This document shows, piece after piece, positions 28,871-46,210 of a stretch of DNA of 64,000 nt. This stretch comes from Dactylococcopsis salina PCC 8305. GTDB taxonomy: Bacteria > Cyanobacteriota > Cyanobacteriia > Cyanobacteriales > Rubidibacteraceae. The notes beneath the pieces were generated by a model. It did no database searches. It had not been told where the DNA came from and was given only the letters and a program-made list of their open reading frames with translations. The stretch is taken from positions 1,943,840 through 2,007,839 of the forward strand of contig NC_019780.1 in the NCBI RefSeq assembly GCF_000317615.1. Direction: 5' to 3'. Position 1 is the first letter of the stretch, and the number at the start of each line of letters is the position of its first letter. The position numbers were made by a program, and so were the translations under genes.

Positions 28871-31573
28871 CTATTTGTCTTCTGGGAAGGTAAGCAACAA
28901 CTCTGCAAAAGAGTTTGGTCGGTAGTTTTCAAATCCTTCTTCATCCACATAAACTGGTTTATAGGTGATCTCTGTTTGCACTTGATTAACATCTTCACAC
29001 CACTGGTGTAGCCGTTGCATTTTTAATGAGACATCCACATCTTCTTTCCCTTTGGTTTCAATGATGAACACTTGATCGTCTTTAGTTTTAACGAAAAAGT
29101 CTGGATAATAATTGGCGATGTCTCCTTCTGCATTCACATAATCTAGCTTAAAATTGACAGCAAGGTAGTTTTTGCTGTAGGAAATGATGTCCTCACAGCT
29201 TTCTAGAAAGTTGGCAAACTCAAGTTCAAATTGACTATCCCCAATCAAACGGTTAAAAATACTTTTTTGAGGCATTAAATAGCCCTGATCTTTGACCACA
29301 AAGGGACGAGTTTCTCTTAATTTAATCGTATCTCGAACTTCTGCATCTCCTTTGTCACGGACAGTTAAATCATTGATCGCCTTCTTAAAAGTTTCTATAA
29401 TTGTCTTCGTGGCGACAACTTCGGAGAGATTGCGGAGGGTGTTCGGTGATTCTAGTTCAACGGTTTTTCCAAACAAAAAATCTTGGATAAATGTCTTAAC
29501 CTTGCCATACAAAACATCGTAGCCACTGACGAGACGCAACTCTTTCATCATGGTTTGGGTGAAATAGCCGATCGCGCTTCGATAGTCAGCAATTCCCCCG
29601 CTATCTAAAAAAGTTGTATGGGTTATTTCGTCTTTAGTAATATCCTTAAAGACAATCTCTCGTTGTTCTTCTTCGCTAAATTGTTGATAGGCGACTTTCT
29701 GAAAGGTCATTGTTTCCAAGTTCAAATCGGAGAGATTCTTATATTCTCGATAAATTCTCGGTGTCAGAATCGGAATTTTGATGTCTAGTGTCTCAATATC
29801 TTTGTTGACATTTTCGTTATCAACTTCTACCATAAGAGGCGTTTTCGGTTTCGTTCCTTCTCCCATTGCTTGCCGATCAAGCGTTACTCCCTCAGCCTGA
29901 ATTGACTCGACAAATTCCATAAAGGCATCTGTACCAATCACACTGAGATATTCTTTTGTTTCTCCTGAGTACATTTTCCGCAAGCCACGTCCGAGAGTTT
30001 GTTCAGGGAGAATATTACTCTTCGCAGAATAAGACCGTAAACCAACAATTGTGGTGACATTCCGAACATCCCAGCCTTCTTTTAAGACTAATACAGAGAC
30101 GATCGCCTTATAGGGACTTTCCAAACTGTCTATCTCGTTGGCTTGCTGACGGAGTTTTTCTAACTCCTCTTTATTCTTTCCAGAATTTGCTTCGGAAATT
30201 TCCCCATTTTTCTTGGTATGAATGACTAAAACAGCATCTTTTAAGTCAGGATAACGATTCTGTAGATACTCTGAAACATCATCACAATTTTTTGTGTCAT
30301 CAGTCATCACAAAGAGAATGGCTTTTTTCCCTAATTTCTGATGTTCCTCATCGGTTTTACGCCATTCCGTTACGCCTAAATCTAAATAATCTGCATATTT
30401 TTCGGTAAATTTGGCACTTTTCTGTTCTTTTAGTTTGCTACGACTGGTAGCATCAGGTAAAACAGGATGCTTGACAACATTTTGGGAGATGGCTTCCACA
30501 AGGGGATAATCAGCGATCGTTTGGACAAAGATCGCGCCATTGTTATGTTTAGGGGTTGCGGTGACATCAACTTGTAAGCTGAGACGGGTATCTTTCTGGA
30601 GTAGCTGGTTATGGATATCCTCGATCGATTTGAACCATGCTAATTTTCGATCGTGGATATGATGGGCTTCATCGTTGAGAATCATTAATTCATCAACATC
30701 ACGAACGATCGCGCCTAAATCGACTTTAGAATCCGTTGTTTGACCAGTGGGACGTTTTCCCAGAAAATAGTCCATTGTGTTCTCATCATCGGGAGAAGGG
30801 GGAACATCGTCTCCTGAATAAACCCGATGGATGTTGGTGAGAAAAATATTGCCGTTCGCGTAGCGTCTCCGAAGGAGAATCGCGCGGTTGATGCGGACAT
30901 CATCCTGTAAGTGGAGAGTCAGTTGGAAATCATCTTGCCAATTTTGTCCGTCATATCCGTTATCTGGAATTACAGGATCATCAAAGAAGATTTGTAAGCC
31001 TTGGAAGTCTTTATAAATTCGATCGAGGACGATAATATTGGGGGCAATAACAAGGAAGTTACGAGATAACTCTGATTCGGGTTCATAGAGTTTATGGAAA
31101 AAACTCCACGCTAGAACCAAACTCATCACTTTCGTTTTACCTGTTCCCGTCGCCATTTTGACAACATAGCGTCGCCACGTTTCATCAAACATACTGGCGG
31201 AGACAATCCCACTGCCATCAAATCGCATTAAATCATATTTATCTTTTGCCCCAACCACATCATAGAGATAGATAATCGTTTCTAAGGCTTCCCGTTGGGC
31301 GAAGTAATACTGGAAATTTACCATCATTCCGCCAAGACTCGGAATGAGATGAGGTTCTTTGAACCACCAATTCAGAAGGCTTTTGCTAGTTTCACTTGCC
31401 CCTACATAGCCACTATCCCGAAACTGCTTCACATGGCGACGCAGTTGAACCACCAATGGAGGCATCAATTTTTCCATTCCCTGATCCCGTAGTGTTTCAT
31501 CGGCAGGAAACCAGCGAATTTCTGGATCGAGAATGGTATGGGGGGAGTCTGGGAAATCGGGATGTAATGCCAT
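28871..31573 (-). CDS. res: Type III restriction endonuclease subunit (Res)
   Basis: A 900-residue superfamily 2 helicase-nuclease, the translocating and cutting subunit of type III restriction-modification. Seen: motif I VVKMATGTGKTKVMS (about 135-149), motif II LNDEAHHIHD, motif III VTATPK, late helicase motif EQTLGRGLRKM, and near the C-terminus (about 815-840) the PD-(D/E)xK nuclease core YPDFFV...FIIETKGK. It ends 17 bases after tRNA-Thr. The matching mod gene is on the same strand at 34525-36813, but 2.95 kb of oppositely oriented genes lie between them. No frame damage is seen. Confidence 0.9.
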   Translation of the reverse strand: MALHPDFPDSPHTILDPEIRWFPADETLRDQGMEKLMPPLVVQLRRHVKQFRDSGYVGASETSKSLLNWWFKEPHLIPSLGGMMVNFQYYFAQREALETIIYLYDVVGAKDKYDLMRFDGSGIVSASMFDETWRRYVVKMATGTGKTKVMSLVLAWSFFHKLYEPESELSRNFLVIAPNIIVLDRIYKDFQGLQIFFDDPVIPDNGYDGQNWQDDFQLTLHLQDDVRINRAILLRRRYANGNIFLTNIHRVYSGDDVPPSPDDENTMDYFLGKRPTGQTTDSKVDLGAIVRDVDELMILNDEAHHIHDRKLAWFKSIEDIHNQLLQKDTRLSLQVDVTATPKHNNGAIFVQTIADYPLVEAISQNVVKHPVLPDATSRSKLKEQKSAKFTEKYADYLDLGVTEWRKTDEEHQKLGKKAILFVMTDDTKNCDDVSEYLQNRYPDLKDAVLVIHTKKNGEISEANSGKNKEELEKLRQQANEIDSLESPYKAIVSVLVLKEGWDVRNVTTIVGLRSYSAKSNILPEQTLGRGLRKMYSGETKEYLSVIGTDAFMEFVESIQAEGVTLDRQAMGEGTKPKTPLMVEVDNENVNKDIETLDIKIPILTPRIYREYKNLSDLNLETMTFQKVAYQQFSEEEQREIVFKDITKDEITHTTFLDSGGIADYRSAIGYFTQTMMKELRLVSGYDVLYGKVKTFIQDFLFGKTVELESPNTLRNLSEVVATKTIIETFKKAINDLTVRDKGDAEVRDTIKLRETRPFVVKDQGYLMPQKSIFNRLIGDSQFELEFANFLESCEDIISYSKNYLAVNFKLDYVNAEGDIANYYPDFFVKTKDDQVFIIETKGKEDVDVSLKMQRLHQWCEDVNQVQTEITYKPVYVDEEGFENYRPNSFAELLLTFPEDK

Positions 31574-31696
31574 TGGTTATCTCCTGATATAAAATCCTAA
31601 ATGCCTGCTATAATCGCCTCTAGCCCAGTTTTTGTTTGAGAGAGCGGAATTGCCTGCAGAGGGTCGTCATTTTAGTAGTAGAATTTAAAAGATTTT

Positions 31697-31987
31697 ATGG
31701 CAATTGAAGTAAGAGCATTAGATGAGGAAGAATTTAATGCAGCCACTCAAGGAAGTTACGTTTACGGTACATTAAGTGGTTATGTCAAAGGAAAAATGCG
31801 TACTGCTTATGTCCTAATAGAAAATTTAGGAAAAGAACAGCCGTGTGTTGGTCGGAAATATGAAAATATTCCCTGCAAATTTTTTGTCTCTGGTGAAATT
31901 TACTACGCTCAAACTGAACAAGATATAGACAATCAAGAATTTGAGAACGCAGAGCCATTTATAGAAGCAATTATTTTGCTTGGTTAA
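31697..31987 (+). CDS. Hypothetical protein upstream of the Septu-like pair
   Basis: 96-residue soluble, acidic protein (MAIEVRALDEEEFNAATQGS...), beta-rich in the middle (GTLSGYVKGKMRTAYVLIEN). I do not recognise a family. It lies on the same strand as ptuA, 370 bases upstream, within the insert that splits res from mod. Real coding is supported by an ATG, consistent codon use and placement; function unknown. Confidence 0.6.
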   Translation: MAIEVRALDEEEFNAATQGSYVYGTLSGYVKGKMRTAYVLIENLGKEQPCVGRKYENIPCKFFVSGEIYYAQTEQDIDNQEFENAEPFIEAIILLG

Positions 31988-32132
31988 CCTGAGTCTTTTG
32001 CTTGCTCCGTCTTGGGGGAGCATCGGCTTTTTTATATTTAACAATCTTTCCTTGATACTCATTCATAAATTCAAGCATTTTATCGTGAGAGACATTATGG
32101 ACTTCGCCGTTAGTTAATTTAATTTCAACCAT
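31971..32132 (-). CDS. 53-residue hypothetical protein
   Basis: Short frame from ATG at 32132 to TAA at 31971. Product MVEIKLTNGEVHNVSHDKML... with a basic Pro/Arg/Lys-rich tail (KADAPPRRSKQK). The beta-hairpin-like start and basic end resemble small nucleic-acid-binding or regulatory proteins. It overlaps the end of the convergent 96-residue gene by 17 bases. Not recognised; could be a small regulator of the neighbouring defence genes. Confidence 0.4.
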   Translation of the reverse strand: MVEIKLTNGEVHNVSHDKMLEFMNEYQGKIVKYKKADAPPRRSKQKTQVNQAK

Positions 32133-32354
32133 TGTTTTTCTACCCTTTAACTTTACTCATAACTAGCTTAACGCGAATTAACGAGTTGAACGCAAATCAC
32201 TCGTAGGGTGAGAACCGCCTACCATCAGGTAATTTTACTTTTCCAAAATTGTATCAGTTGGAGATTGCTTTTAGAAGCGCGATCGCGATACAAGCAAGTT
32301 ATACGGCGCAGATAATAATGCTATTATTCAATCAAGATAACGACAAGCCAAACA

Positions 32355-33641
32355 GTGTATATTAAAACTCTGACTCTCACCAATTATCGTGGCGTAAAAT
32401 CCCTCTCCCTTGACGTCGACAAGCAGTTAAATGTTTTTGTAGGGGTTAATGGTGCGGGTAAATCCACCGTCCTTGATGCGATGGTAATGATGCTTTCATG
32501 CGTTGTTAGTCGGATTGGAGAGGTAATAGGTAAACAGAGTGAAGATCGTCAAATTGTAGAAGATGATATCAGAAATGAGGCTGATTTTACATTAATTGCA
32601 CTCTGTTGTATTGATAAAAATCGAACGTTTCAGTGGCGAATTGCTACCAGTCGTAGAGGAGATATTTCTCTAGAACAGCCCACTGATTTAACACAATTAG
32701 AAACTTATACTGAACAGCTAAAAAGAGAAATTATAGATCATCAAGAAAGCATCAATATCCCTTTATTTGTCTATTATCCTGTTAATCGAGCCGTCTTAGA
32801 CATTCCTTTAAAAATTAAAACTAAACATCGTTTTGATTTATTAAACGCTTATGATGAATCTTTAACCAGTGGGGCTAATTTTCGGAAATTTTTCGAGTGG
32901 TTTCGAGAACGAGAAGATTTAGAAAATGAAAAAGTTGCTGAAACGAGAGAGAAACCTTTATTTCATAATCAAATTCCTTATGATCCACAATTACAAGCAG
33001 TTAGAAAAGCGTTAAATCAATTTTTGCCAAACTTTAAAAACCTCAGAGTTCGCCGTAATCCATTGCGAATGGAAATAGAAAAAGATGGGGAGATATTAAC
33101 CGTTAATCAATTGTCTGATGGAGAAAAATGTTTAATTGCAATGGTGAGTGATTTAGCGAGAAGATGTGCCATTGCTAACCCTGAACGTCCTGATCCGCTT
33201 CAAGGAGAGGGAGTCGTCCTTATTGATGAAATTGACCTCCATCTTCACCCAAAATGGCAACGAATGATTGTTCCTCAACTTTTAGAAGTTTTTCCAAATT
33301 GTCAGTTTTTTATTTCGACACATTCTCCTCATGTGTTAACTCATGTTCAATCAGAACAAATTTTTCTTTTGAAGCAAACTGAAGACGGAATCGAATGGAG
33401 TCAACCTGATGAATCTTATGGAAAAAATGTCGATCGCGTTCTAGAAGATTTAATGGAATTAGACACAACACGACCGACAGTAGTTAGTAATAGTATTCAT
33501 AATATTTATGAAATGATTGACAAAAATAATTTACAGGAAGCACAAGATCAAGTCAGTGAAATGAGAAGCAAAATTGGCAACGATCCAGAATTATTAAAAG
33601 CGGAAGTCCTCATCAAACGAAAAGAACGTATTGGGAAATGA
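32355..33641 (+). CDS. ptuA: Septu-like AAA ATPase (PtuA)
   Basis: 428-residue ABC/SMC-like ATPase. Seen: LTNYRGVKSLSLD start, Walker A GVNGAGKST (28-36), signature LSDGEKCLIAM (about 254), Walker B VLIDEIDLHLHP and the His switch FISTHSPHVL. Its stop overlaps the start of an HNH gene by 4 bases (ATGA). The ATPase plus TIGR02646-type HNH pair is the Septu anti-phage layout, where the complex degrades DNA or halts phage growth on infection. The start is a GTG at 32355. No reverse transcriptase is nearby, so it is not a retron. Alternative: another OLD-like ATPase/HNH system. Confidence 0.75.
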   Translation: MYIKTLTLTNYRGVKSLSLDVDKQLNVFVGVNGAGKSTVLDAMVMMLSCVVSRIGEVIGKQSEDRQIVEDDIRNEADFTLIALCCIDKNRTFQWRIATSRRGDISLEQPTDLTQLETYTEQLKREIIDHQESINIPLFVYYPVNRAVLDIPLKIKTKHRFDLLNAYDESLTSGANFRKFFEWFREREDLENEKVAETREKPLFHNQIPYDPQLQAVRKALNQFLPNFKNLRVRRNPLRMEIEKDGEILTVNQLSDGEKCLIAMVSDLARRCAIANPERPDPLQGEGVVLIDEIDLHLHPKWQRMIVPQLLEVFPNCQFFISTHSPHVLTHVQSEQIFLLKQTEDGIEWSQPDESYGKNVDRVLEDLMELDTTRPTVVSNSIHNIYEMIDKNNLQEAQDQVSEMRSKIGNDPELLKAEVLIKRKERIGK

Positions 33642-34267
33642 AATATATTCAAAAAGACAGTGAACCCCAAGAATTTACAGATTGGAAAAATCAAGAAAAT
33701 TCTAATTGGAAACCCAGTTACAAGGAAATGGATAAATCTGTCAAGAAAGCAGTTAAACAAGCATTGATGACAGAACAAGGCTATATTTGTTGTTATTGTG
33801 AAGATCGATTAAATGATAATGACTCGCATATTGAACATTTTCAACCCAAAAGTGATCCTGCAATTGATCCCCTAGATTTTTCTAACTTGTTGTGTTCCTG
33901 TCAAAATAATTTAAAAAAGCGAGAACCTGTTCACTGTGGAAAACTCAAGGGTGACTGGTTTGATGAAAAACAATTAATTTCACCCCTTGATCCGACTTGT
34001 GAAGAACGATTTGCTTTTACGGCTGACGGTTCGATCAAACCTGCTGATAATCGAGATCAGGTAGCGCTGACAACAATTGAAAAATTAGGTTTAAATATTC
34101 CGAAATTACGAAACTTACGTCAAAAGGCGATCGAGTCTTTTATTGATCCTTCTTTATCAGATAGAGAGTTGGAAGACTTTGTGAATAGTTATCTTGAACC
34201 TGATAATTTGGGTCAGTTTAATCCTTTCTGGACAACAGTTCGTTACTTATTTGGAATAAGGGAGTAA
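33638..34267 (+). CDS. ptuB: Septu-like HNH endonuclease (PtuB)
   Basis: 209-residue HNH nuclease of the TIGR02646 type found as PtuB in Septu and as retron effectors. Seen: CCYCEDRLNDNDSHIEHFQP (about 51-70, zinc Cys pair and catalytic His), then LLCSCQNN with the Asn and second Cys pair. It is translationally coupled to the ATPase by an ATGA overlap. Complete length. Nuclease action against invading DNA is known for the family, not shown here. Confidence 0.82.
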   Translation: MKYIQKDSEPQEFTDWKNQENSNWKPSYKEMDKSVKKAVKQALMTEQGYICCYCEDRLNDNDSHIEHFQPKSDPAIDPLDFSNLLCSCQNNLKKREPVHCGKLKGDWFDEKQLISPLDPTCEERFAFTADGSIKPADNRDQVALTTIEKLGLNIPKLRNLRQKAIESFIDPSLSDRELEDFVNSYLEPDNLGQFNPFWTTVRYLFGIRE

Positions 34268-34307
34268 GAGGCAATTCGACTATCTTGGTTGCGATCAATG
34301 TATCATT

Positions 34308-34406
34308 TTCTATCCCCCCTAACCCCCCTTTGAAAGGGGGGAATAAGAGATCATATGACCTTTGAAAGGGGGGAATAAGAGATAATGTGACCTTTTAAAA
34401 GGGGGA
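34308..34406. repeat. CCCCCC hairpin repeat, GGGGGGAATAAGAG units
   Basis: CCCCCCTAACCCCCCTTTGA opens a hairpin, followed by tandem units GGGGGGAATAAGAG and TGACCTTT. A related block with the same AATAAGAGGTAATGTGACC wording lies at 36932-36998, so related repeats flank the mod gene. Confidence 0.8.
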
Positions 34407-34410
34407 ATTA

Positions 34411-34512
34411 TACCATTTCGATAAACTGGCGCTACATACCGATCCCCCCAACCCCCCTTATTAAGGGGGGCGAAGGGGGGATCAACTGTAACTTGACTTT
34501 TTAGAAATGGTA
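34411..34512. mobile_element. MITE family B, 102-base copy 1
   Basis: Ends TACCATTTCGAT and TAGAAATGGTA are inverted repeats. The interior is a large hairpin (GATCCCCCCAACCCCCC ... GGGGGGCGAAGGGGGGATC). TTA occurs on both sides (34408-34410, 34513-34515) as a probable 3-base target duplication. It ends 12 bases from the mod stop codon. The second copy is inverted at 37758-37859. Confidence 0.8.
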
Positions 34513-34524
34513 TTAGATTTTATG

Positions 34525-36813
34525 TTACAAATTCACTTCGACGATCGTCATGGTGTCATTGCCAAAAATATCGACAACTTTAACCGCAATTTTACGGCGA
34601 CCAGAAACACATTCATAAGCGACACTGTGTAACTCTAAGGAACGATCTTTTTTCGTCCGAAAACTCTGCCATTCGTTTTCAAAAATAAAGTCCCCTGTCC
34701 ATTGTTCTTCCCATTCCCCTGTTTCTTCATTTTGAATGCGGATGATTTCTCGCTTGCTTTCAAAATTAAAATCTACTGCCCAATAATCGATCCAGTCTGT
34801 CCAATTTTGGGTTAACTGTTCTCGTTTGAGAATCCCATCTTTATCTTTACTGACTTTGACGATTTGCCCTTTTTCCACCACTACTTTACTCCCCGATTTT
34901 TTCTTTCCTAAGTCTGCTTCGGCTTGTTGAATCGAGTCTTGGGAATAGAAGACAGAAAAGTCGGTTAATTCTACAGCAACGGTTGGCGGTTGATTTTTTT
35001 TCCTTTTTGTAATGTGGGGTTTGACTTCAATATAGGCGACATCATGGAAGACAACTTGATTTTTTTCAACTGCCCGTTTATCAAACACCTCAGCAGGGAT
35101 ATTTTTGGGGGCAATATCAATGCCTTTATTACGGGCTTCATCGAGGACATTGGGGAATAATCCCATCTCAAATTCAAAGCCTAAAATATCAACTTTGGTA
35201 ATCTGCTTTTTGCGACATTCGAGAATAATCTCTTCCACAAACAATCGCGTCACGGGTAAGTTGATGGGTCCCACTGCAACTAAGCGTCCCGATTTTTTCC
35301 CATCAAAGCAGGTAAAGCCTTCTGTTTTTTGGGCTTGATAAGCGCGTAAAATGAGATCGACAAAAGCACGTTCTTTCTCTTCTAATTGCTGACGCTGTTC
35401 TTCTTCACGGAGGTTGGGATTGACTCCAACAAAGTGTTGACGTTCATATTTACCCAGGTTAAGAATTTCAAACGCCCGATAACCTTGTCCTTCTTTTTTT
35501 AGGGTACGCTGAACATTGATCATCCGTTTGCGAGTGGTATGGATGGCAAATTTTCCTAAGTCGGAACATATCCATTTGCGTCCCAGTTTTTCTGCTACAG
35601 AGGCGGTTGTCCCTGAACCGACAAAGAAGTCTGCAACTAGATCGCCTTCATTGGATGAGGCTTTTATAATACGTTCTAGCAACGCTTCTGGTTTTTGTGT
35701 GGGGTAGCCGACAATTTCAGATGATGTTCCTTTTAGAGTTGGAATATTAACCCATAAATTATTTGCTTTTTGTCCTTGATATTCATCAAGATAAATTTTT
35801 TTGTATATTTGCTTATTTTTTGAGTCAGGAAAGTGAAGTCGCCCTTCACGGTCAAGTTTTTCCATTGTTGATCGTGGCACTGCCCAACCATTTGGTGGTG
35901 TCTTATAACCCTTATAATTATACTTGAGGTTTGGACGAGGACTTGGACTTCGCATTACATTAATCATATATCTTCGTCCATCAATATCATAATACTTGAA
36001 TTGTGAATCAATATACTCGTGTGAAGCTTCAGTATAGATTTGATTAAAAGTATATTCTGAACTTTTTGAAAATATAAAAAGAGTATCATAAGCAGCAGAA
36101 AAGTGGCGCATTTCACCAAGTGCTGTCCCTCCTTTTCTACGCCATATAATTTCATTTATCATATTATTATTTCCAAATATTTCATCTAGTAACAATCGGA
36201 TATAACTATTCACTCGGGAATCACAATGAACATAAATACTCCCATCCTCAGCCAATAAATCTCGCATCAAGATCAATCGTTCATAAATCATACTGATAAA
36301 AGAATCCGCCCCTTTTCCCCACGTATCCCGATAAGCAATCTCCTCCAGAATATTGGGCTTCTTTGTCAGCGTCTCGTCTCCCACCTCAATATCCATGGAA
36401 AAATCTGCACCCACATCAAACGGCGGATCAATATAAATCAGCTTAATCCCCCCTTGTCTTTCGATCTCCTCTCGTAGCGGTCCATTTTTCAAGGAAGACA
36501 AAATCAGCTTATTATCACCCCAAATCAGCTTATTTGTCCATCCCTTCAACTGTCTCCCCCGACTGTCAACATCGAACAAACTCATCTGCATGGTTGTATC
36601 CGATGGCTTTTCCGCACGGGGTTCATCCACCTGTTCAATGGTCTGAAACGGGAGAACAGTCCGACACACCTGATTAGTCTTACCATTCCATACTAATTCT
36701 ACTTCGCGTTTATCTTCAAATAGTAGAAACCGATACTTTTCTGGTAAGGGCTGATCTTGTTCAAGATAGCGGATGATTTCTTGCTTCTCTTGTTCGGTGA
36801 GTCGAGACGACAT
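34525..36813 (-). CDS. mod: Type III-like DNA methyltransferase (Mod)
   Basis: 762-residue beta-class amino-methyltransferase (N6-adenine or N4-cytosine). Seen: motif [15 protein letters not shown] (about 130) and, later, motif [19 protein letters not shown] (about 395), the beta-class order. Between them is a variable target-recognition region, and a long C-terminal domain follows. It supplies recognition and protection for the res subunit at 28871-31573 on the same strand. The two would normally be adjacent, but here ptuA-ptuB intrude on the other strand. No frame damage. Confidence 0.9.
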
Positions 36814-37254: not shown

Positions 37255-37479
37255 ATGAATACTCTTACTTTAGAAAATGTAATTGAATATATTGAAGATT
37301 TATCAATAGAGGAACAAGAGGAGTTATTTGATTTGATTAAAAAAAGAAGGATTGAAAGGCGACGTTCTGAAATCGCAGAAAATGCGAAGAAAACGTTTGA
37401 GGCTGTAGAACAGGGAACTGCTGTGCGAGGAAATATTGAAGACCTAAAATCTTATTTATCAGCAGATGAAGAAGAATGA
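37255..37479 (+). CDS. Antitoxin-like protein of a YafQ/RelE-type pair
   Basis: 74-residue acidic, helical protein (MNTLTLENVIEYIEDLSIEE...) with a central basic helix (KKRRIERRRSEIAENAKKT). This is the usual make-up of cyanobacterial antitoxins that precede RelE-like toxins. Its stop overlaps the toxin start by 4 bases (ATGA). ATAAGGAG at 37241-37248 is a strong ribosome site. The DNA-binding class is not recognised. Confidence 0.75.
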   Translation: MNTLTLENVIEYIEDLSIEEQEELFDLIKKRRIERRRSEIAENAKKTFEAVEQGTAVRGNIEDLKSYLSADEEE

Positions 37480-37757
37480 TTTTAGTTACAGAAACAACCT
37501 TTAAAAGGGCATTTAAGCGATTAACGAAGAAAAACCCACATTTGAAAAAGAAGATATTTTATACTTTAAATATACTAGCTAATGACCCTTTTACTCCTTC
37601 CTTGAAATCTCATAAATTAACGGGGCAATTGGAAGGATTATGGTCTTGTACTGTTACTTATGATTGTCGAATTATTTTTGCTTTAAGAAAAGAGACTGAA
37701 AGTGGAAATGATTTAATTGTTTTAATTGATATTGGTAGCCACGATGAAGTTTATTAA
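37476..37757 (+). CDS. YafQ/RelE-superfamily mRNA interferase toxin
   Basis: 93-residue RelE-fold toxin: FKRAFKRLTKKNPHLKKKI, then SLKSHKLTGQLEGLWSCTVT and YDCRIIFAL, the typical YafQ-type core where Arg and Asp/His residues contact mRNA in the ribosome. Coupled to the antitoxin by ATGA overlap. Appears intact. Its TAA stop (37755-37757) is one of the two TAA target-duplication copies around a 102-base MITE. Confidence 0.85.
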   Translation: MILVTETTFKRAFKRLTKKNPHLKKKIFYTLNILANDPFTPSLKSHKLTGQLEGLWSCTVTYDCRIIFALRKETESGNDLIVLIDIGSHDEVY

Positions 37758-39028: not shown

Positions 39029-39326
39029 GTGAGAATTATTGCTCGGAGTACCTTACGAGCGTTTTGGGAACGACACGCCGACGCAGAACAACCCTTAATT
39101 AAAGGCTTGGTTTCATGATGTCTCTTCTATGCAATGGCAAACTCCAGCCGACATTAAAAGAGTTTATGCGAATGCTAGTATTTTGCCGAATAATCGTGTG
39201 GTCTTTAACATCAAAGGTAACGATTACCGTCTAATTGTCCATGTTCGCTATGACATTGGGATTATCTTTATTCGCTTTGTCGGAACCCATCAAGAGTATG
39301 ACAAGGTTGATGCAACAACTATCTGA
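39029..39326 (+). pseudogene. higB: HigB toxin gene, frameshifted
   Basis: From GTG at 39029 (ribosome site GAGGAGG) the frame reads VRIIARSTLRAFWERHADAE, the HigB N-terminus, then stops at a TGA near 39120. The rest of HigB (WFHDVSSMQWQTPADIKRVY, then GNDYRLIVHVRYDIGIIFIR) continues in the next frame to 39326. One extra G near 39103-39107 (AAAGGCTTGG where AAAGCTTGG is expected) explains the break. As written, no full toxin is made. Confidence 0.85.
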
Positions 39327-39764: not shown

Positions 39765-41327
39765 ATGGTAAATGATCAACAATCTCTATTTCCCCCCCGT
39801 AGTGTCGCTGAATTGGTGGAAGATATTGAAAAACTAACTGAGGAAATTCAAAAGCTGTATCTTCTAGACGAAATTCCTTGGGTAATTGGCTATAGCGGAG
39901 GAAAAGATTCGACGGCAACTTTACAACTTATTTGGAACGCGATCGCTACTCTGCCAGTTGAACAAAGGCATAAAACCATATATGTCATTACCACTGATAC
40001 GTTAGTAGAAAATCCGATTGTTTCAACTTGGGTTCGTAAGTCTTTACAAAAATTAGAAGCAACAGCAGAAAATCAAAACATACCTATTAAGCCGAATTTG
40101 CTCCATCCCTCAGTTCAAGAAACATTTTGGGTATGTCTAATGGGAAGAGGATATCCAGCACCGCGTCAAGGTTTCCGTTGGTGTACAGATCGCATGAAGA
40201 TTCAACCCGTTAATCATTTTATTCGGGAAATGGTTAGGAATAATGGAGAAACAATTGTTGTTTTAGGAAGCCGTAAAGCAGAAAGTATTACTCGTGGAAG
40301 AACATTGCGAAAACATCAAGTTGGAAGAGTGCGCGATCGTCTTAGCCCTAATAGTCGATTACCGAATTCTTTAGTTTACACCCCCATTGAAGACTGGCAA
40401 ACTAATGAAGTCTGGATGTATTTAATGCAGTGGGAAAACCCTTGGGGAGGAAACAATAAAGACTTACTTTCCATGTATCAAGGGGCAACTGCGGATAATG
40501 AATGTCCGTTAGTTGTTGATACTTCTACGCCTAGCTGTGGCGACTCCCGCTTTGGCTGTTGGGTTTGCACCATGGTGAGTAAAGATAAGTCAATGGAGGC
40601 AATGATTCAAAATGACGAAGAAAAAGAATGGATGCAACCGTTGTTAGATATTCGCAATGAATTAGATGTGGAAAACGACCACGATCGCCGCGATTTTCGC
40701 CGCATTTATGGCAAAGTTGAACTCTTTGAACGTAATACAGGAGATGGAGAAACTTCAATTAAACCCATACCTGGCCCTTATACCAAATATTGGCGGGAAT
40801 ATTGGTTAAGACGAGTTTTAGAAGCACAAGTGGAAGTGCGAAAAAATGCCCCTAAAGGCATGGAAGATATTACACTAATTACTGAAGAAGAGTTAAGCGA
40901 AATTCGTCGCATCTGGTTAGAAGAAAAACACGAGTTTGATGATAGTCTCCCTCGCATTTATGAAGAAGTAACGGGTCAAGTTTTTCGTGATCCTCGTGTT
41001 GGCGCAACTAATCAGGTTTTAGGAAGTGATGAATGGAGTGTTTTAGAGGAACTTTGTGAGGATGAAATGCACTTAGAATTGATGACGAAATTGTTGGATA
41101 CGGAACGACAATATCATACGAAATCTCGTCGGGTGGGAATTTATGACTCTTTAGAAAAGTGTTTTGAAACCAGTTCTCGTAGTAAGGAGGAAGCGATCGA
41201 AGCGGCCCATTTAAAACGAGATTTGAAAACAGCCGTTAAAGGTGAAGATGCGGAAAAAGTTAAACAATTAACTTGGGCAAATATTAAGTTTTCTGGGAAG
41301 AATCAAGACAATCATTCCTCGGAATAA
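39765..41327 (+). CDS. dndC: DNA phosphorothioation protein DndC
   Basis: 520-residue PAPS-reductase-like ATP-pyrophosphatase. In the Dnd system it activates DNA and, with a cysteine desulfurase, DndD and DndE, replaces a backbone oxygen by sulfur. Seen: PP-loop VIGYSGGKDSTATLQLIW (40-57), GFRWCTDRMKI, GSRKAESITRGR, and a later Cys group (CPLVVDTSTPSCGDSRFGCW) able to hold an Fe-S cluster. Length is normal. dndD lies downstream but separated by three genes on the other strand; dndB and dndE are not seen. Confidence 0.88.
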   Translation: MVNDQQSLFPPRSVAELVEDIEKLTEEIQKLYLLDEIPWVIGYSGGKDSTATLQLIWNAIATLPVEQRHKTIYVITTDTLVENPIVSTWVRKSLQKLEATAENQNIPIKPNLLHPSVQETFWVCLMGRGYPAPRQGFRWCTDRMKIQPVNHFIREMVRNNGETIVVLGSRKAESITRGRTLRKHQVGRVRDRLSPNSRLPNSLVYTPIEDWQTNEVWMYLMQWENPWGGNNKDLLSMYQGATADNECPLVVDTSTPSCGDSRFGCWVCTMVSKDKSMEAMIQNDEEKEWMQPLLDIRNELDVENDHDRRDFRRIYGKVELFERNTGDGETSIKPIPGPYTKYWREYWLRRVLEAQVEVRKNAPKGMEDITLITEEELSEIRRIWLEEKHEFDDSLPRIYEEVTGQVFRDPRVGATNQVLGSDEWSVLEELCEDEMHLELMTKLLDTERQYHTKSRRVGIYDSLEKCFETSSRSKEEAIEAAHLKRDLKTAVKGEDAEKVKQLTWANIKFSGKNQDNHSSE

Positions 41328-41366
41328 GACAGCCTAGTAATGATAATTTTCCCCGTTTAATTTTCA

Positions 41367-41615
41367 TTATTCTACTAAATCAGCCTCGGCGATCTCAGTT
41401 AATTCTTTTAAGTCTTGATCTTGTTCATAAACTTCTGCATAGAGGTCTGCCGATTTCTCTAAATCTTGTTTTTCGATGAGAGATATATCTTTAACTTGTT
41501 TTTGATGGATTAAAGCCAAAATATAATCATTGCAATTCGAGTATTTCCCTTTAGCAAATTGTTGATCAATGAACTTTTTTATGGACTCAGAAATCACGAT
41601 AGGAATTGAAGTCAT
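41367..41615 (-). CDS. ParD-like ribbon-helix-helix antitoxin, no toxin partner
   Basis: 82 residues, starting IPIVISESIKKFIDQQFAKG then KYSNCNDYILALI, the ParD/RHH DNA-binding pattern, with an acidic tail. A ParE toxin would be expected overlapping downstream, but that side runs into the dndC 3' end, so it is an orphan. It sits in the insert between dndC and dndD. Confidence 0.75.
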   Translation of the reverse strand: MTSIPIVISESIKKFIDQQFAKGKYSNCNDYILALIHQKQVKDISLIEKQDLEKSADLYAEVYEQDQDLKELTEIAEADLVE

Positions 41616-41640
41616 AGATTTTATTCTCTCCTTTCTAACA

Positions 41641-41850
41641 TTAAAAAATCACTTCCTTTGCCATTCCTTCAACGGTTACACGCTGGAGATCAGTCCTCAT
41701 ACTAGCATTTTCAAAAGTAATCGCGCAGATATTTTCTTGAGCATCTAAATCTAAAATTGTATTCTCATCAAGGTCTTTGGTTTCAACAATATCATTAACG
41801 CGAAATTCAATGTAAAGAGTATCTGTTTCTTCAAAATATTTAACTTTCAT
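41641..41850 (-). CDS. DUF2283 family protein
   Basis: 69 residues: VKYFEETDTLYIEFRVNDIV, then ETKDLDENTILDLDAQENI, the duplicated DUF2283 beta pattern. Such proteins are usually the second gene of small two-gene toxin-antitoxin-like modules with DUF4258 partners. It overlaps the preceding gene by 4 bases. Function unknown. Confidence 0.8.
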   Translation of the reverse strand: MKVKYFEETDTLYIEFRVNDIVETKDLDENTILDLDAQENICAITFENASMRTDLQRVTVEGMAKEVIF

Positions 41851-42089
41851 AACTTAAATCTTCTATCAAAAAAAGCATTATGAACTGTTTCCCCATCTGG
41901 TAAAAGTATAACGCGAAGATATCGACCTTCTCTTTCTTCAATACGCTTCCAACGTCGTATCCGTCCATCTGCTTGAATGACTTCATGGTCTGGAGATTGA
42001 AGGGTTCGTAAAATCCAATCATCCTCAATCATAGCGCGGTCTGGACGAGTCCGAACTGCTTGAAAGTATTGGGTGCATTTGAATTTCAT
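41847..42089 (-). CDS. DUF4258-like partner of the DUF2283 protein
   Basis: 80 residues from ATG 42089 (MKFKCTQYFQAVRTRPDRA); starts at 42098 or 42110 are possible. The pattern H/Y-F..R...R..I...WI......P and GRIRRWKRIEEREGRYLRVI then LPDGETVHNAFFDR fits the DUF4258 RelE-like group. ATGA overlap with the DUF2283 gene. Probable toxin-like member of a toxin-antitoxin module, by context. Confidence 0.65.
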   Translation of the reverse strand: MKFKCTQYFQAVRTRPDRAMIEDDWILRTLQSPDHEVIQADGRIRRWKRIEEREGRYLRVILLPDGETVHNAFFDRRFKL

Positions 42090-42154
42090 AGCTACCATTA
42101 TGGCATTCAAATGTTTAAAATATAATAGTGTCCTACAATATTTAAAACTTCCTT

Positions 42155-44134
42155 GTGATTTTACGTGAACTTGTCTTAGAAAATTTTGGTCCGTATCGCG
42201 ATCGCCAAGTGGTCGATTTAACCCCTGGCGCTGATCAAGAAATGCGTCCGATTATCTTGATTGGTGGGATGAATGGCGGCGGAAAAACAACGTTTATGGA
42301 TGCGATTCGTTTGGCATTTTATGGACAACGCGCACAATGTTCTACACGGGGAAGTTTGAGTTATGCTGATTTTCTCTCCCAAGCAGTTAATAATCGGAGT
42401 GAGGGAAAAACTCGCATTGAGTTGGCGTTTGAGGAGGTGTTTGATAATCAGTTAGTTGTTTTTAGAATTACTCGTAGTTGGCAAAAGGGAGACGGTAAGG
42501 ATACACTTAGTATTTTAGTTGATGATTGGCCCGATCGCGCTCTGACTAATACTTGGGATGAATATATTGAAAATTTACTCCCATTAGGAATTTCTAATTT
42601 ATTTCTATTTGATGGCGAACAAGTTAAGGAATTGGCGGAATTAGATGTTCCTCCACCTCCCGTAAAGGAGGCGATTCAATCCTTACTGGGATTAGAATTA
42701 GCGGAAAAGTTGGGGGAAGATTTAGAGGTTTTAGTGAATCGTAAACGGAAACAGTTAGCGAATCAAACTACTCTCAAAACTTTAGAAACGATCGAAGAGA
42801 AACTGAATCAGCAAACTGCTGAATATAAACAAGAAAAAGCCCAATTAACAGAGTTAGAAGATAAGCTAAATCGCGCTCGTGAAAACTACCGTCTAGCTTC
42901 GGAAAACTTTATTTCAGAAGGAGGGAAAATTGCCTCAAAACGGGCGCAAATGGAAGGAAAAATTAAGGAACTGAAAGCAACAGCAGAGACGGAAAGAGAT
43001 AGTTTAAGAGAAATGGCGGCGGGAGTGCTACCTTTAGCGTTGATTACGCCCTTATTACAAGCAGCGAAACAGCAGGGAGAAACTGAATTAGACTATCAAC
43101 AAGCATTAATCACTCAAGAAGTCCTAAAAAAACGCGATCGCGCCCTCTTAGATTATATCCATCAACTCGCGATTTCCGCCACAGAAGTAGATAAAATTTC
43201 CGCTTTTTTACAACAAGAAAACCAGGTTATTGAGGAAAAGTTAAACCCAGAAACGCCTCCCTATTTACGTCCCGAACAAGACACAATTAACTTATTAAAT
43301 ACAGTTTTAGATCATCGGCTTCCCAGTCAACTGAGAGAGTTAAATAATAAACAAGAAAAATTGCGAGAAATTCAAATTGAAATTGATAATAGCGATCGAG
43401 AAATTGCTAACGCCGCCTCTCCAGAAGTGTACCAAAAATTAGAAGAAGCAGTAAAGAAAGCGCAAAATCAACGCGCAGAAGCTCAAGCAAATTACGAAGC
43501 CAAACGGCGTTATTGTAATGAATTAGAAGCAAAAATTAAAACGACAAAACAAGAACTAGAACGTTATAGCCAAGAAGCAATTGACGAACGCAATAACGAA
43601 CATATTATTAAATCAGCAGGAAAAGTTCAGAAGACTTTAGAACAATTCAAACAGAAATTAACCCTGAAAAAACTGAATAAACTAGAAATCGAAGTAACGG
43701 AATGTTTCCGCTATTTACTCCATAAATCAGATTTAGTTCATCGCGTTAGTATTGATACCCATAACTTTCGCCTTTCTCTATTTAATCCAGACGGAAAACC
43801 AATCCCCAAACATCGCCTTTCTGCTGGAGAAAAACAACTACTTGCGATCGCGTTTTTGTGGGGATTAGCACGAGTTTCTCATCGTCAATTGCCGATCGCA
43901 ATTGACACTCCATTAGGGCGTTTAGATTCTTCCCATCGTCATAATTTAGTAGAACGTTATTTCCCCAGCGCTTCTCATCAGGTTATTCTTTTATCTACAG
44001 ATACAGAAATCGGAAACGTAGAATATCAACAACTACAAAATCAAAGCGCGATCGCTCACGAATATCAATTAAAATATGATGGGGAAACAGGAGAAACTTA
44101 TGTTAAAACAGGATATTTCTTCAACGAAAACTAA
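42155..44134 (+). CDS. dndD: DNA phosphorothioation ATPase DndD
   Basis: 659-residue SMC/Rad50-like ATPase of the Dnd pathway; in studied systems its ATPase helps open DNA for sulfur insertion. Seen: LENFGPYRDRQVVDLTPG, Walker A LIGGMNGGGKTTFMDAIR (about 36-53), FLFDGEQVKELAEL, a long coiled coil (about 190-520), signature LSAGEKQLLAIAFLWGLARV, Walker B IAIDTPLGRLD and the H-loop LLSTDTEI. The start is a GTG at 42155. It needs its own promoter because the upstream neighbours are on the other strand. Its stop is 2 bases before brnT. Confidence 0.88.
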   Translation: MILRELVLENFGPYRDRQVVDLTPGADQEMRPIILIGGMNGGGKTTFMDAIRLAFYGQRAQCSTRGSLSYADFLSQAVNNRSEGKTRIELAFEEVFDNQLVVFRITRSWQKGDGKDTLSILVDDWPDRALTNTWDEYIENLLPLGISNLFLFDGEQVKELAELDVPPPPVKEAIQSLLGLELAEKLGEDLEVLVNRKRKQLANQTTLKTLETIEEKLNQQTAEYKQEKAQLTELEDKLNRARENYRLASENFISEGGKIASKRAQMEGKIKELKATAETERDSLREMAAGVLPLALITPLLQAAKQQGETELDYQQALITQEVLKKRDRALLDYIHQLAISATEVDKISAFLQQENQVIEEKLNPETPPYLRPEQDTINLLNTVLDHRLPSQLRELNNKQEKLREIQIEIDNSDREIANAASPEVYQKLEEAVKKAQNQRAEAQANYEAKRRYCNELEAKIKTTKQELERYSQEAIDERNNEHIIKSAGKVQKTLEQFKQKLTLKKLNKLEIEVTECFRYLLHKSDLVHRVSIDTHNFRLSLFNPDGKPIPKHRLSAGEKQLLAIAFLWGLARVSHRQLPIAIDTPLGRLDSSHRHNLVERYFPSASHQVILLSTDTEIGNVEYQQLQNQSAIAHEYQLKYDGETGETYVKTGYFFNEN

Positions 44135-44985: not shown

Positions 44986-46210
44986 ATGCTTACCCTTTCC
45001 TACGAATACAGGCTAGAACCAAACCAATTACAAATCGACATGATCGAGAGTACGCTCGGTGTTTGCCGAACAGTTTGGAATTACGCACTTAGAGAAAGAA
45101 AAGATTGGATCAACTCTCGAAAATGCCCCATTAATGCTTGTTCGATTGAAAAGGAATATATCATCTCTCCAGATGAACCTTATCCTAGTTACTCTAGACA
45201 AGCAAAGGCTTTAACTGAGGCTAAGAAAGACAGCGAACGACTTAAATCAGTTAATGCTCAAGTTCTCCAACAAGTTTTGAGAACATTAGATCGGGCTTTC
45301 TCTGACATGAAAGCTAGAGGATTCGGTTTTCCCAGATTTAAGAATAAGTATCGTTTAAGGTCTTATCTGATTCCTCAGCTAAAAGGACAAGTATTAAAAG
45401 GAAATCAAGTTAAACTCCCTCAATTAGGTTGGGCAAGGTTCAGAAAGTCTAGGGAAATTCCAGAGGGCTTTAAGGTTAAACAGGCGAGAGTGATCTCAAA
45501 AGCCTCTGGTTATTTTGTCATGCTTTCTCTCCAATTAGATGTGGATGTTCCTCAACCCTTCCCTCATGGACACCCAAGAGGGTTAGATTTGGGCTTTGAC
45601 AAATTTGTTGCTACTTCCGATGGTTTAGAAGTTAAGCGACCTCGGTTTTTGAAGTCTCTACAAAGGAAGCTGAAATTGCTCCAACGTAGGCTTAAAAACA
45701 AAAAGAAAGGGTCGAATAACCGCCATAAACTAAACAGGAAAATAGCAAGAGTCCACGCCTAGTATCTCTGATGCTCGTAAAGATTGGCACTTCAAACTTG
45801 CTCATCAATTGTGTGATGGAGCAGGAATGATCTTTGTCGAAGATATTAATTTCCGTTCGTGGCAAAGAGGAATGCTGTCTAAGCACGCAGCGGATGCTGG
45901 TTTTGGTCAGTTTGTGAATATCCTTGAGTGGGTATGTTGGAAACGTGATGTTTACTTTGCCAAAGTTGACAAAGATGGTACTTCTCAAGAATGTAGCCAG
46001 TGTGGAGCGCATACAGGAAAGAAAACATTAGATGTGAGAGTTCATCACTGTCCTGAATGTGGATACACTGGCTCAAGAGATGTGGTGAGTGCTGAAGTAA
46101 TTAGAAATCGGGGAATCTCCGACCTCGGACAGGGGTTAGAGACTAAACAAATTGCCTGTGGAGGCGATCTGACGGGGGCAAAGGAAACTTTGCCTAGTAA
46201 GCGAGCCTGA
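44986..46210 (+). pseudogene. tnpB: TnpB RNA-guided nuclease, frameshifted
   Basis: TnpB of IS200/IS605 elements is an ancestor-like relative of Cas12 that cuts DNA guided by an omega RNA from the element's right end. The first 258 codons (YEYRLEPNQLQIDMIESTLG ... GLDLGFDKFVATSD with the first RuvC Asp) end at a TAG at 45760. The rest (FVEDINFRSW with Glu, zinc finger CSQCG...CPECG, GSRDVVSAEV with the last Asp) runs in the next frame to 46210. A single net +1 (or -2) shift near 45755-45760 separates them. All catalytic residues remain, so the break is recent. Confidence 0.88.

What the first reader, a model, noticed from the sequence alone, without database searches (positions are those of the whole stretch)
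39765..44134. Two-gene Dnd locus: dndC and dndD split by opposing toxin-antitoxin-like genes, without dndB or dndE
dndC and dndD are both full length, yet 827 bp with an orphan ParD-like gene and a DUF2283/DUF4258-like pair on the other strand lie between them. Known Dnd modification needs a desulfurase, C, D and E. No DndE-like frame is in the island and no dndFGH restriction part is seen. Either E is elsewhere, or this is a reduced or altered DndCD system.
Basis: partly seen in the sequence, partly recalled or inferred. Interest (0 to 1): 0.65.

Follow-up and report, generated by a model that had tools for sequence, protein, structure and literature searches.

The report
Scattered DNA-sulfur system in a cyanobacterium
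The two sulfur-modification genes in this window are not a stripped-down system: the missing partners, including a likely antiviral arm, sit elsewhere on the same chromosome, and relatives usually keep the whole set even where its genes lie far apart.

Summary
In detail: full-length dndC (39765-41327) and dndD (42155-44134) are separated by 827 bp carrying opposing small genes, and no dndE or dndB lies in the window. The reading "reduced DndCD system" fails. The genome has one dndE, 365 kb away, 2 bp behind proS. It also holds PbeA (helicase part only), PbeC with a 4-bp-overlapping small ORF like PbeB, and two "phosphorothioation-associated" families, TIGR04062 and TIGR04096. The seven searched families lie at six places. 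DndB, DptF and the HNH family NF045808 were not found in it. Of 63 genomes of the order, 48 hold all seven families, in one cluster or at up to seven places. TIGR04062, of unassigned function, is predicted to fold like DndE, so it is probably PbeD. The 52 PbeA frames over cut-off in the order are too short for the N-terminal nuclease region. The dndC-dndD insert is local: two close relatives have 34-35 bp there. Cyanobacterial dnd disorder is already published (PMC8569181), and TIGR04062 and TIGR04095 were built by profiling against DndD (PMC3226654). What my searches did not find in print is that these "solo" systems carry a scattered Pbe arm. Phosphorothioate itself was not measured.

The parts
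39765..41327 (+). dndC, phosphorothioation sulfurtransferase (520 aa)
   Evidence: TIGR03183 703.9 bits; S44, G46, K47, D48, S49 (at least 98%) and Cys 140, 247, 258, 265, 268, 466 (all) kept in the 52-genome alignment; dN/dS 0.077 against L108
42155..44134 (+). dndD, ABC-type ATPase (659 aa)
   Evidence: TIGR03185 664.6 bits; Walker A GMNGGGKT, no CxC motif; dN/dS 0.062 against L108
41328..42154 (.). 827-bp dndC-dndD spacer with a local insert of about 800 bp; the gap in two close relatives is 34-35 bp
   Evidence: L108 gap 35 bp, L109 gap 34 bp; blastn of the window against L108 breaks at 41318 and resumes at 42115; junctions read
41367..41615 (-). orphan, weakly ParD-like antitoxin gene
   Evidence: TIGR02606 20.6 bits, below cut-off; no Pfam match
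41641..41850 (-). DUF2283 gene
   Evidence: PF10049 58.6 bits
41847..42110 (-). small ORF overlapping the DUF2283 gene; DUF4258 not confirmed
   Evidence: no Pfam match at E<=10; relatives on two Rhodothermus plasmids, 50% identical, annotated hypothetical protein
39129..39326 (+). HigB-type toxin gene, upstream of dndC
   Evidence: PF09907 95.7 bits
39341..39637 (+). probable HigA-type partner (name recalled)
   Evidence: position behind HigB; only sub-threshold RecX_HTH2 and RecX_HTH1 matches, 16.0 and 12.8 bits
44137..44415 (+). BrnT-type toxin gene, starts 2 bp behind the dndD stop
   Evidence: PF04365 100.1 bits
44396..44626 (+). BrnA-like partner ORF (name recalled)
   Evidence: no match over a cut-off; one at 12.6 bits to an unrelated family

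Best explanation
dndC and dndD are one piece of a complete but chromosomally scattered phosphorothioation system that is mostly passed on vertically in this order of cyanobacteria. A housekeeping cysteine desulfurase feeds sulfur to DndC; DndC, DndD and the unlinked DndE put sulfur into the DNA backbone. A second arm of the Pbe kind goes with it: PbeC (CxC ATPase), a small PbeB-like protein, a DndE-fold PbeD (TIGR04062) and a helicase-only PbeA. It probably senses DNA that lacks the sulfur mark and stalls its replication. The toxin-antitoxin-like genes between dndC and dndD are later insertions, not parts of the system. Shown: gene content, places, intactness, conservation, co-occurrence. Inferred: activity, complex formation, the sulfur donor, the role of the Pbe arm and of TIGR04062.
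For: Own genome: DndE; TIGR04095/PbeA 630 bits, cut-off 600; PbeC 903 bits in PADLOC with a CxC motif; PbeB-like ORF with 4-bp overlap, found in 7 of 8 PbeC loci examined; TIGR04062 154 bits; TIGR04096 676 bits; five class-V aminotransferases at E<=1e-10. Six places. Of 63 order genomes 48 hold all seven families, G054 with its split PbeA included; pairwise phi 0.74-0.94 among C, D, E, PbeC, PbeA and TIGR04062, while the HNH family NF045808 gives -0.01 to 0.16 with these six. C, D and E distances correlate over 52 genomes, r 0.73-0.88, 0 of 1000 permutations as high. dN/dS 0.058-0.16 for C, D, E and PbeC. TIGR04062 model: the ten best Foldseek matches are all DndE; VIA Z 10.0, 9.7, 9.0 for the three DndE entries, next entry 6.5.
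Against: No phosphorothioate was measured. TIGR04062 and TIGR04095 were built by profiling against DndD (PMC3226654, passages read), so their co-occurrence is partly by selection. TIGR04062-DndE likeness is not seen by profile-profile comparison (probability 1.5, reversed control 2.4); its Foldseek E-values are only 0.08-0.56, and the aligner's own note says that best Z of 7-8, or 14 for helical models, occurs without a clear relative. PADLOC gives no match for TIGR04062 or for the PbeB-like ORFs, even at E<=10. In the same-genus genome G054 PbeA is in two pieces around a group II intron-type gene, so the Pbe arm may be dispensable there. Congruent trees are expected of any vertically inherited genes, and dN/dS speaks of past selection. 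G080 has C, D, E without PbeA, PbeC or TIGR04062; G157 has E and Pbe parts without C or D.
Confidence: 0.66

Rival explanations
1. Solo modification: only DndCDE is active and serves against oxidative stress or as an epigenetic mark; the Pbe-like genes do something unrelated or are relics.
For: Jian 2021 (PMC8569181; abstract, section 7 and passages read) reports no dndFGH in Cyanobacteria and proposes an antioxidant origin. PbeA lacks the nuclease part and is split in G054.
Against: PbeC, PbeA and TIGR04062 are mostly lost and kept together with C, D and E; PbeC dN/dS is 0.16.
Confidence: 0.25
2. Decaying relic: the split locus marks a dnd system on its way out in this genome.
For: The insert replaces the last codons of dndC; decay is seen elsewhere in the set (G058 fragments, G157 broken TIGR04096 and PbeA, DndC of G172 in two pieces).
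Against: All parts have open frames here, motifs are conserved, dN/dS 0.06-0.16.
Confidence: 0.06
3. A different chemistry: a true two-protein DndCD enzyme, with the distant DndE belonging only to the Pbe arm.
For: G157 keeps DndE, PbeC and TIGR04062 without DndC or DndD.
Against: dndE lies within 2.5 kb of dndD in 33 of 54 genomes that hold both; D-E distances correlate best, r 0.88; TIGR04062 offers the Pbe arm a DndE-fold partner of its own; G157 is a draft of about 200 contigs.
Confidence: 0.03

Closest known systems
DndABCDE phosphorothioation (Streptomyces, Salmonella, E. coli)
   Same: DndC, DndD, DndE families well over cut-off
   Different: genes not in one operon; no DndB or DptF found; no desulfurase linked to dndC
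DndCDEA-PbeABCD of Haloterrigena jeotgali (PMC6459918; passages with the abstract, and section 10 read)
   Same: PbeA helicase part, a small ORF before PbeC, PbeC, and a protein of 155 aa with a predicted DndE fold (PbeD there has 152 aa, PbeB 66 aa)
   Different: parts scattered; PbeA lacks the N-terminal PLD part; no virus test; our PbeB-like and TIGR04062 proteins were not aligned to theirs
CxC ABC ATPase with clade-2 DndE (PMC10853773; abstract, sections 12, 14, 16 and passages read)
   Same: CxC motif in the 686-aa ATPase; the TIGR04062 model has an 11-residue first loop and a 20-residue C-terminal helix, nearer to that paper's clade 2 (average 15; at least 19) than to clade 1 (3-5; 10)
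   Different: that paper's main text holds neither 'cyanobacteri-' nor TIGR04062
Cyanobacterial dnd of Jian 2021 (PMC8569181)
   Same: incomplete clusters, disordered operons, vertical inheritance, no dndFGH
   Different: in the passages read, gene clusters count only when adjacent and dndFGH is the one restriction part sought; here partners were sought genome-wide

Membership tests
Dnd modification (DndCDE) | DndC family protein with intact PP-loop and cysteines | tested here: met
   703.9 bits; conserved residues
Dnd modification (DndCDE) | DndD family ATPase | tested here: met
   664.6 bits; Walker A
Dnd modification (DndCDE) | DndE present in the genome | tested here: met
   149 bits over cut-off 25, 365 kb from dndD
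Dnd modification (DndCDE) | genes in one cluster | tested here: not met
   dndC and dndD together, dndE unlinked
Dnd modification (DndCDE) | cysteine desulfurase DndA or IscS | tested here: inconclusive
   five class-V aminotransferases, none at the dnd loci; best 37% identical to the desulfurase beside dndC in L109
Dnd modification (DndCDE) | phosphorothioate in DNA | not testable with these tools
   needs LC-MS or iodine cleavage
PbeABCD | PbeC with CxC motif | tested here: met
   903 bits; CxC near residue 339
PbeABCD | PbeA with PLD/HKD part and SF2 helicase | tested here: not met
   helicase part only: profile positions 225-681 of 682; no PLD match
PbeABCD | PbeB, small protein beside PbeC | tested here: inconclusive
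   ORF with 4-bp overlap, recurring in 7 of 8 loci; no PADLOC match in the 5 tested; not compared with PbeB itself
PbeABCD | PbeD, a DndE relative | tested here: inconclusive
   predicted DndE fold; not by sequence profile nor PADLOC
PbeABCD | four genes adjacent | tested here: not met
   PbeA, PbeC and TIGR04062 at three places
DndFGH | DptF present | tested here: not met
   best 21.2 bits, cut-off 50; G and H not searched

The most novel reading that the evidence does not exclude
In this order of cyanobacteria a mobile defence cluster has become a fixed chromosomal trait. Its parts (DndC, DndD, DndE, PbeA-D and the TIGR04096 protein) are held together by selection although scattered over up to seven places, TIGR04062 is the missing PbeD, and PbeA has shed its nuclease, so the system marks and guards DNA without cutting it.
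Probability: 0.4. Interest if true: 0.65.

Novelty: new variant of a known kind. Interest (0 to 1): 0.5.

Why it matters
A 2025 review calls cyanobacterial dnd the most frequent 'solo' modifiers (PMC12707154, passages read). If the partners are present but scattered, the antioxidant-only account of their origin needs a second look, and a PbeA form without its nuclease region bears directly on the disagreement over whether Pbe cuts DNA (PMC6459918 saw no cleavage, PMC10853773 argues for it). TIGR04062 also gains a testable function.

Tried and rejected
Considered and dropped: the small genes as a guard of dndCD (absent from the C-D spacers of L108 and L109; the G054 spacer holds other ORFs, one of them Rdx family); DUF4258 as a label; a plasmid search that gave only two hypothetical proteins.

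TIGR04062 against DndE by hhalign failed (probability 1.5; reversed control 2.4; one of 20 column shuffles gave a spurious 99.5, so this control is unreliable). PADLOC gave no match for TIGR04062 or TIGR04096, Pfam none either.

Rows dropped or kept before counts: DndC-like matches of G011 and G169 (about 30% identity) were dropped and DndC of G172, in two pieces, was kept as one; DndD was counted only over cut-off; G058's DndC fragment counts but not; G169 was left out. PbeA pieces of G054 and G157 were counted as present. None of the 43 HNH matches used for comparison reaches that family's cut-off. One search used 22 genomes that I picked because their genes lay on one contig; it is not all such genomes. 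The DndD/PbeC search scored only the five best candidates per genome, so some PbeC absences may be false.

PbeA domains were scanned in Pfam only for this genome, G030, G191 and the first piece of G054 and in PADLOC for this genome, G062 and G191; for the other genomes I go by frame length.

Full report
WHAT IS IN THE WINDOW. dndC (39765-41327) and dndD (42155-44134) are intact and far over the family cut-offs. The 827-bp spacer holds three small genes on the other strand: a weak ParD-like one, a DUF2283 gene, and one without a Pfam match. Toxin-type genes also flank the pair: HigB upstream, BrnT 2 bp behind dndD. Further up, a YafQ-type toxin lies at 37476-37757.

THE SPACER. In L108, the nearest named relative (DndC 88% identical), dndC and dndD are 35 bp apart, and pyruvate kinase follows dndD directly, as it follows the locus here after an extra 2.2 kb. 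L109 has a 34-bp gap and the end of a cysteine desulfurase gene directly before dndC. The alignment with L108 breaks at 41318 and resumes at 42115, so about 800 bp were put in and the last codons of dndC replaced. In the same-genus genome G054 the gap is 1013 bp but with other small ORFs. Of 53 genomes with both genes, 38 have them within 3.5 kb; the gap there runs from 8 bp to 3.2 kb and is 600 bp or more in 16 of the 38. So a wide spacer is common and not a defining trait.

THE PARTNERS ARE ELSEWHERE. In the same 3.78-Mb contig: TIGR04062 at 949877, TIGR04096 at 976797, dndC-dndD at 1983604-1987958, dndE at 2352651, PbeA (TIGR04095) at 2609682, PbeC at 3654969. dndE starts 2 bp behind a class II tRNA synthetase gene with an editing domain, read as proS. 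PbeC carries a CxC motif and is overlapped by 4 bp by a small ORF; the same arrangement was found in 7 of 8 PbeC loci examined, the exception being G185. DndB was not found at E<=10, DptF gave 21 bits against a cut-off of 50, and the HNH family NF045808 gave no match at E<=1e-10 in this genome.

THE SET IS KEPT TOGETHER. In one draw of 194 genomes of the phylum, 57 held DndC, DndD or DndE by the lists (54, 55 and 55 genomes) and 52 of these held all three. In the 63 genomes of the order, 48 hold all seven families, 8 hold none of the six core ones, one holds PbeA alone and 6 are partial. Phi among the six core families is 0.74-0.94; the HNH family, as a loose comparison without any match over its cut-off, gives -0.01 to 0.16 with them, TIGR04096 0.49-0.75. 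TIGR04062 and TIGR04095 were themselves chosen by profiling against DndD (PMC3226654, passages read), so their part of this is not independent. Phi takes no account of descent.

THE PLACES VARY. In 22 genomes that I picked, the seven genes lie at one place in 3 (G068, G123, G165) and at seven places in 5 (G056, G109, G119, G143, G185); this genome has six, a place being genes within 20 kb. dndC and dndE lie more than 100 kb apart on one contig in 13 genomes. On a tree of joined C, D and E, linked against split needs four changes over the 40 genomes whose state is known (28 linked, 12 split, 12 unknown); the tree is a quick one, with long branches for G080, G149 and G191.

INTACT AND SELECTED. 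Distances of C, D and E agree over 52 genomes (r 0.83 C-D, 0.73 C-E, 0.88 D-E; 0 of 1000 permutations as high), as vertical inheritance predicts. dN/dS is 0.077 and 0.062 for dndC and dndD against L108, with 0.038 for pyruvate kinase as control, and 0.135, 0.09, 0.058 and 0.16 for dndC, dndD, dndE and pbeC against G054; synonymous sites are near saturation, so these are rough.

TIGR04062. An AlphaFold2 model from 34 relatives has mean pLDDT 81 and pTM 0.76. Foldseek's ten best PDB matches are all DndE (7x4e, 4lrv, 5wtu), though at E 0.08-0.56. VIA-align gives Z 10.0, 9.7 and 9.0 for the three DndE entries and 6.5 for the next, part of the F plasmid relaxosome; its note warns that middling Z is common. 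Sequence profiles do not see the likeness, nor does PADLOC. PbeD of Haloterrigena has 152 aa (PMC6459918, passage read); TIGR04062 here has 155. Rakesh 2024 calls PbeD the DndE cognate of the CxC ATPase and gives its clade 2 a first loop of 15 residues on average and a C-terminal helix of at least 19 (PMC10853773, sections 14 and 16 read); the model has 11 and 20. I take TIGR04062 as a probable PbeD.

PbeA WITHOUT ITS NUCLEASE PART. Of 54 PbeA matches over cut-off, 52, all in the order, have open frames of 451-550 aa; G169 and G191, outside the order, have 714 and 733. The G191 protein covers the PADLOC PbeA profile from position 1 and has a sub-threshold PLD match (20.9 bits, cut-off 27); the one here covers 225-681 only, without PLD match; G030 has no PLD match and G062 covers 244-681. 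G070 and G116 also have longer, more distant PbeA-like frames (698 and 688 aa) below cut-off. Whether a separate nuclease serves elsewhere was not tested.

PRIOR WORK. Jian 2021 (PMC8569181: abstract, section 7, passages) reports incomplete and disordered dnd clusters in Cyanobacteria, vertical inheritance, and no dndFGH. A 2025 review (PMC12707154, passages) calls solo modifiers most frequent in Cyanobacteria. Searches of the held library for phosphorothioate with PbeA and cyanobacteria, for TIGR04062, for PbeABCD/PbeD and for cyanobacterial dnd gave listings and passages in which I saw no report of a scattered Pbe arm in Cyanobacteria or of TIGR04062 as PbeD; supplements were not read, and most subscription papers are not held.

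VERDICT. This is a scattered member of a known system, with three points of interest: co-retention without linkage, a probable identity for TIGR04062, and a PbeA without its nuclease part.

Noticed in passing
window 28871-36813: PtuA and PtuB genes (32355-34267, Septu-like; PADLOC 531 and 289 bits) lie nested, on the other strand, between a type III-like methyltransferase (34525-36813) and a restriction helicase (28871-31573).
   Followed up: no
window 44986-46210: A TnpB-type gene in two ORFs (258 aa with OrfB_IS605 domains, 133 aa with the TNB domain), between the dnd locus and pyruvate kinase.
   Followed up: partly
L271:7273-11339 (G054): In the same-genus genome pbeA is in two pieces, with a 609-aa group II intron-type reverse transcriptase/maturase gene between them.
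   Followed up: partly
L210 (G058): Remnants of dndC (335 aa) and dndD (71 aa) near each other, with dndE, PbeC, PbeA over cut-off and TIGR04062 not found: apparent loss in progress.
   Followed up: partly
L109:54-659: The end of a cysteine desulfurase gene (PADLOC SspA 221, DndA 220 bits) directly upstream of dndC in a Halothece MAG; the best class-V aminotransferase found in this genome is 37% identical.
   Followed up: partly
G157: Same-family draft genome with DndE, PbeC, TIGR04062 and a broken PbeA but no DndC or DndD found, and a broken TIGR04096.
   Followed up: no
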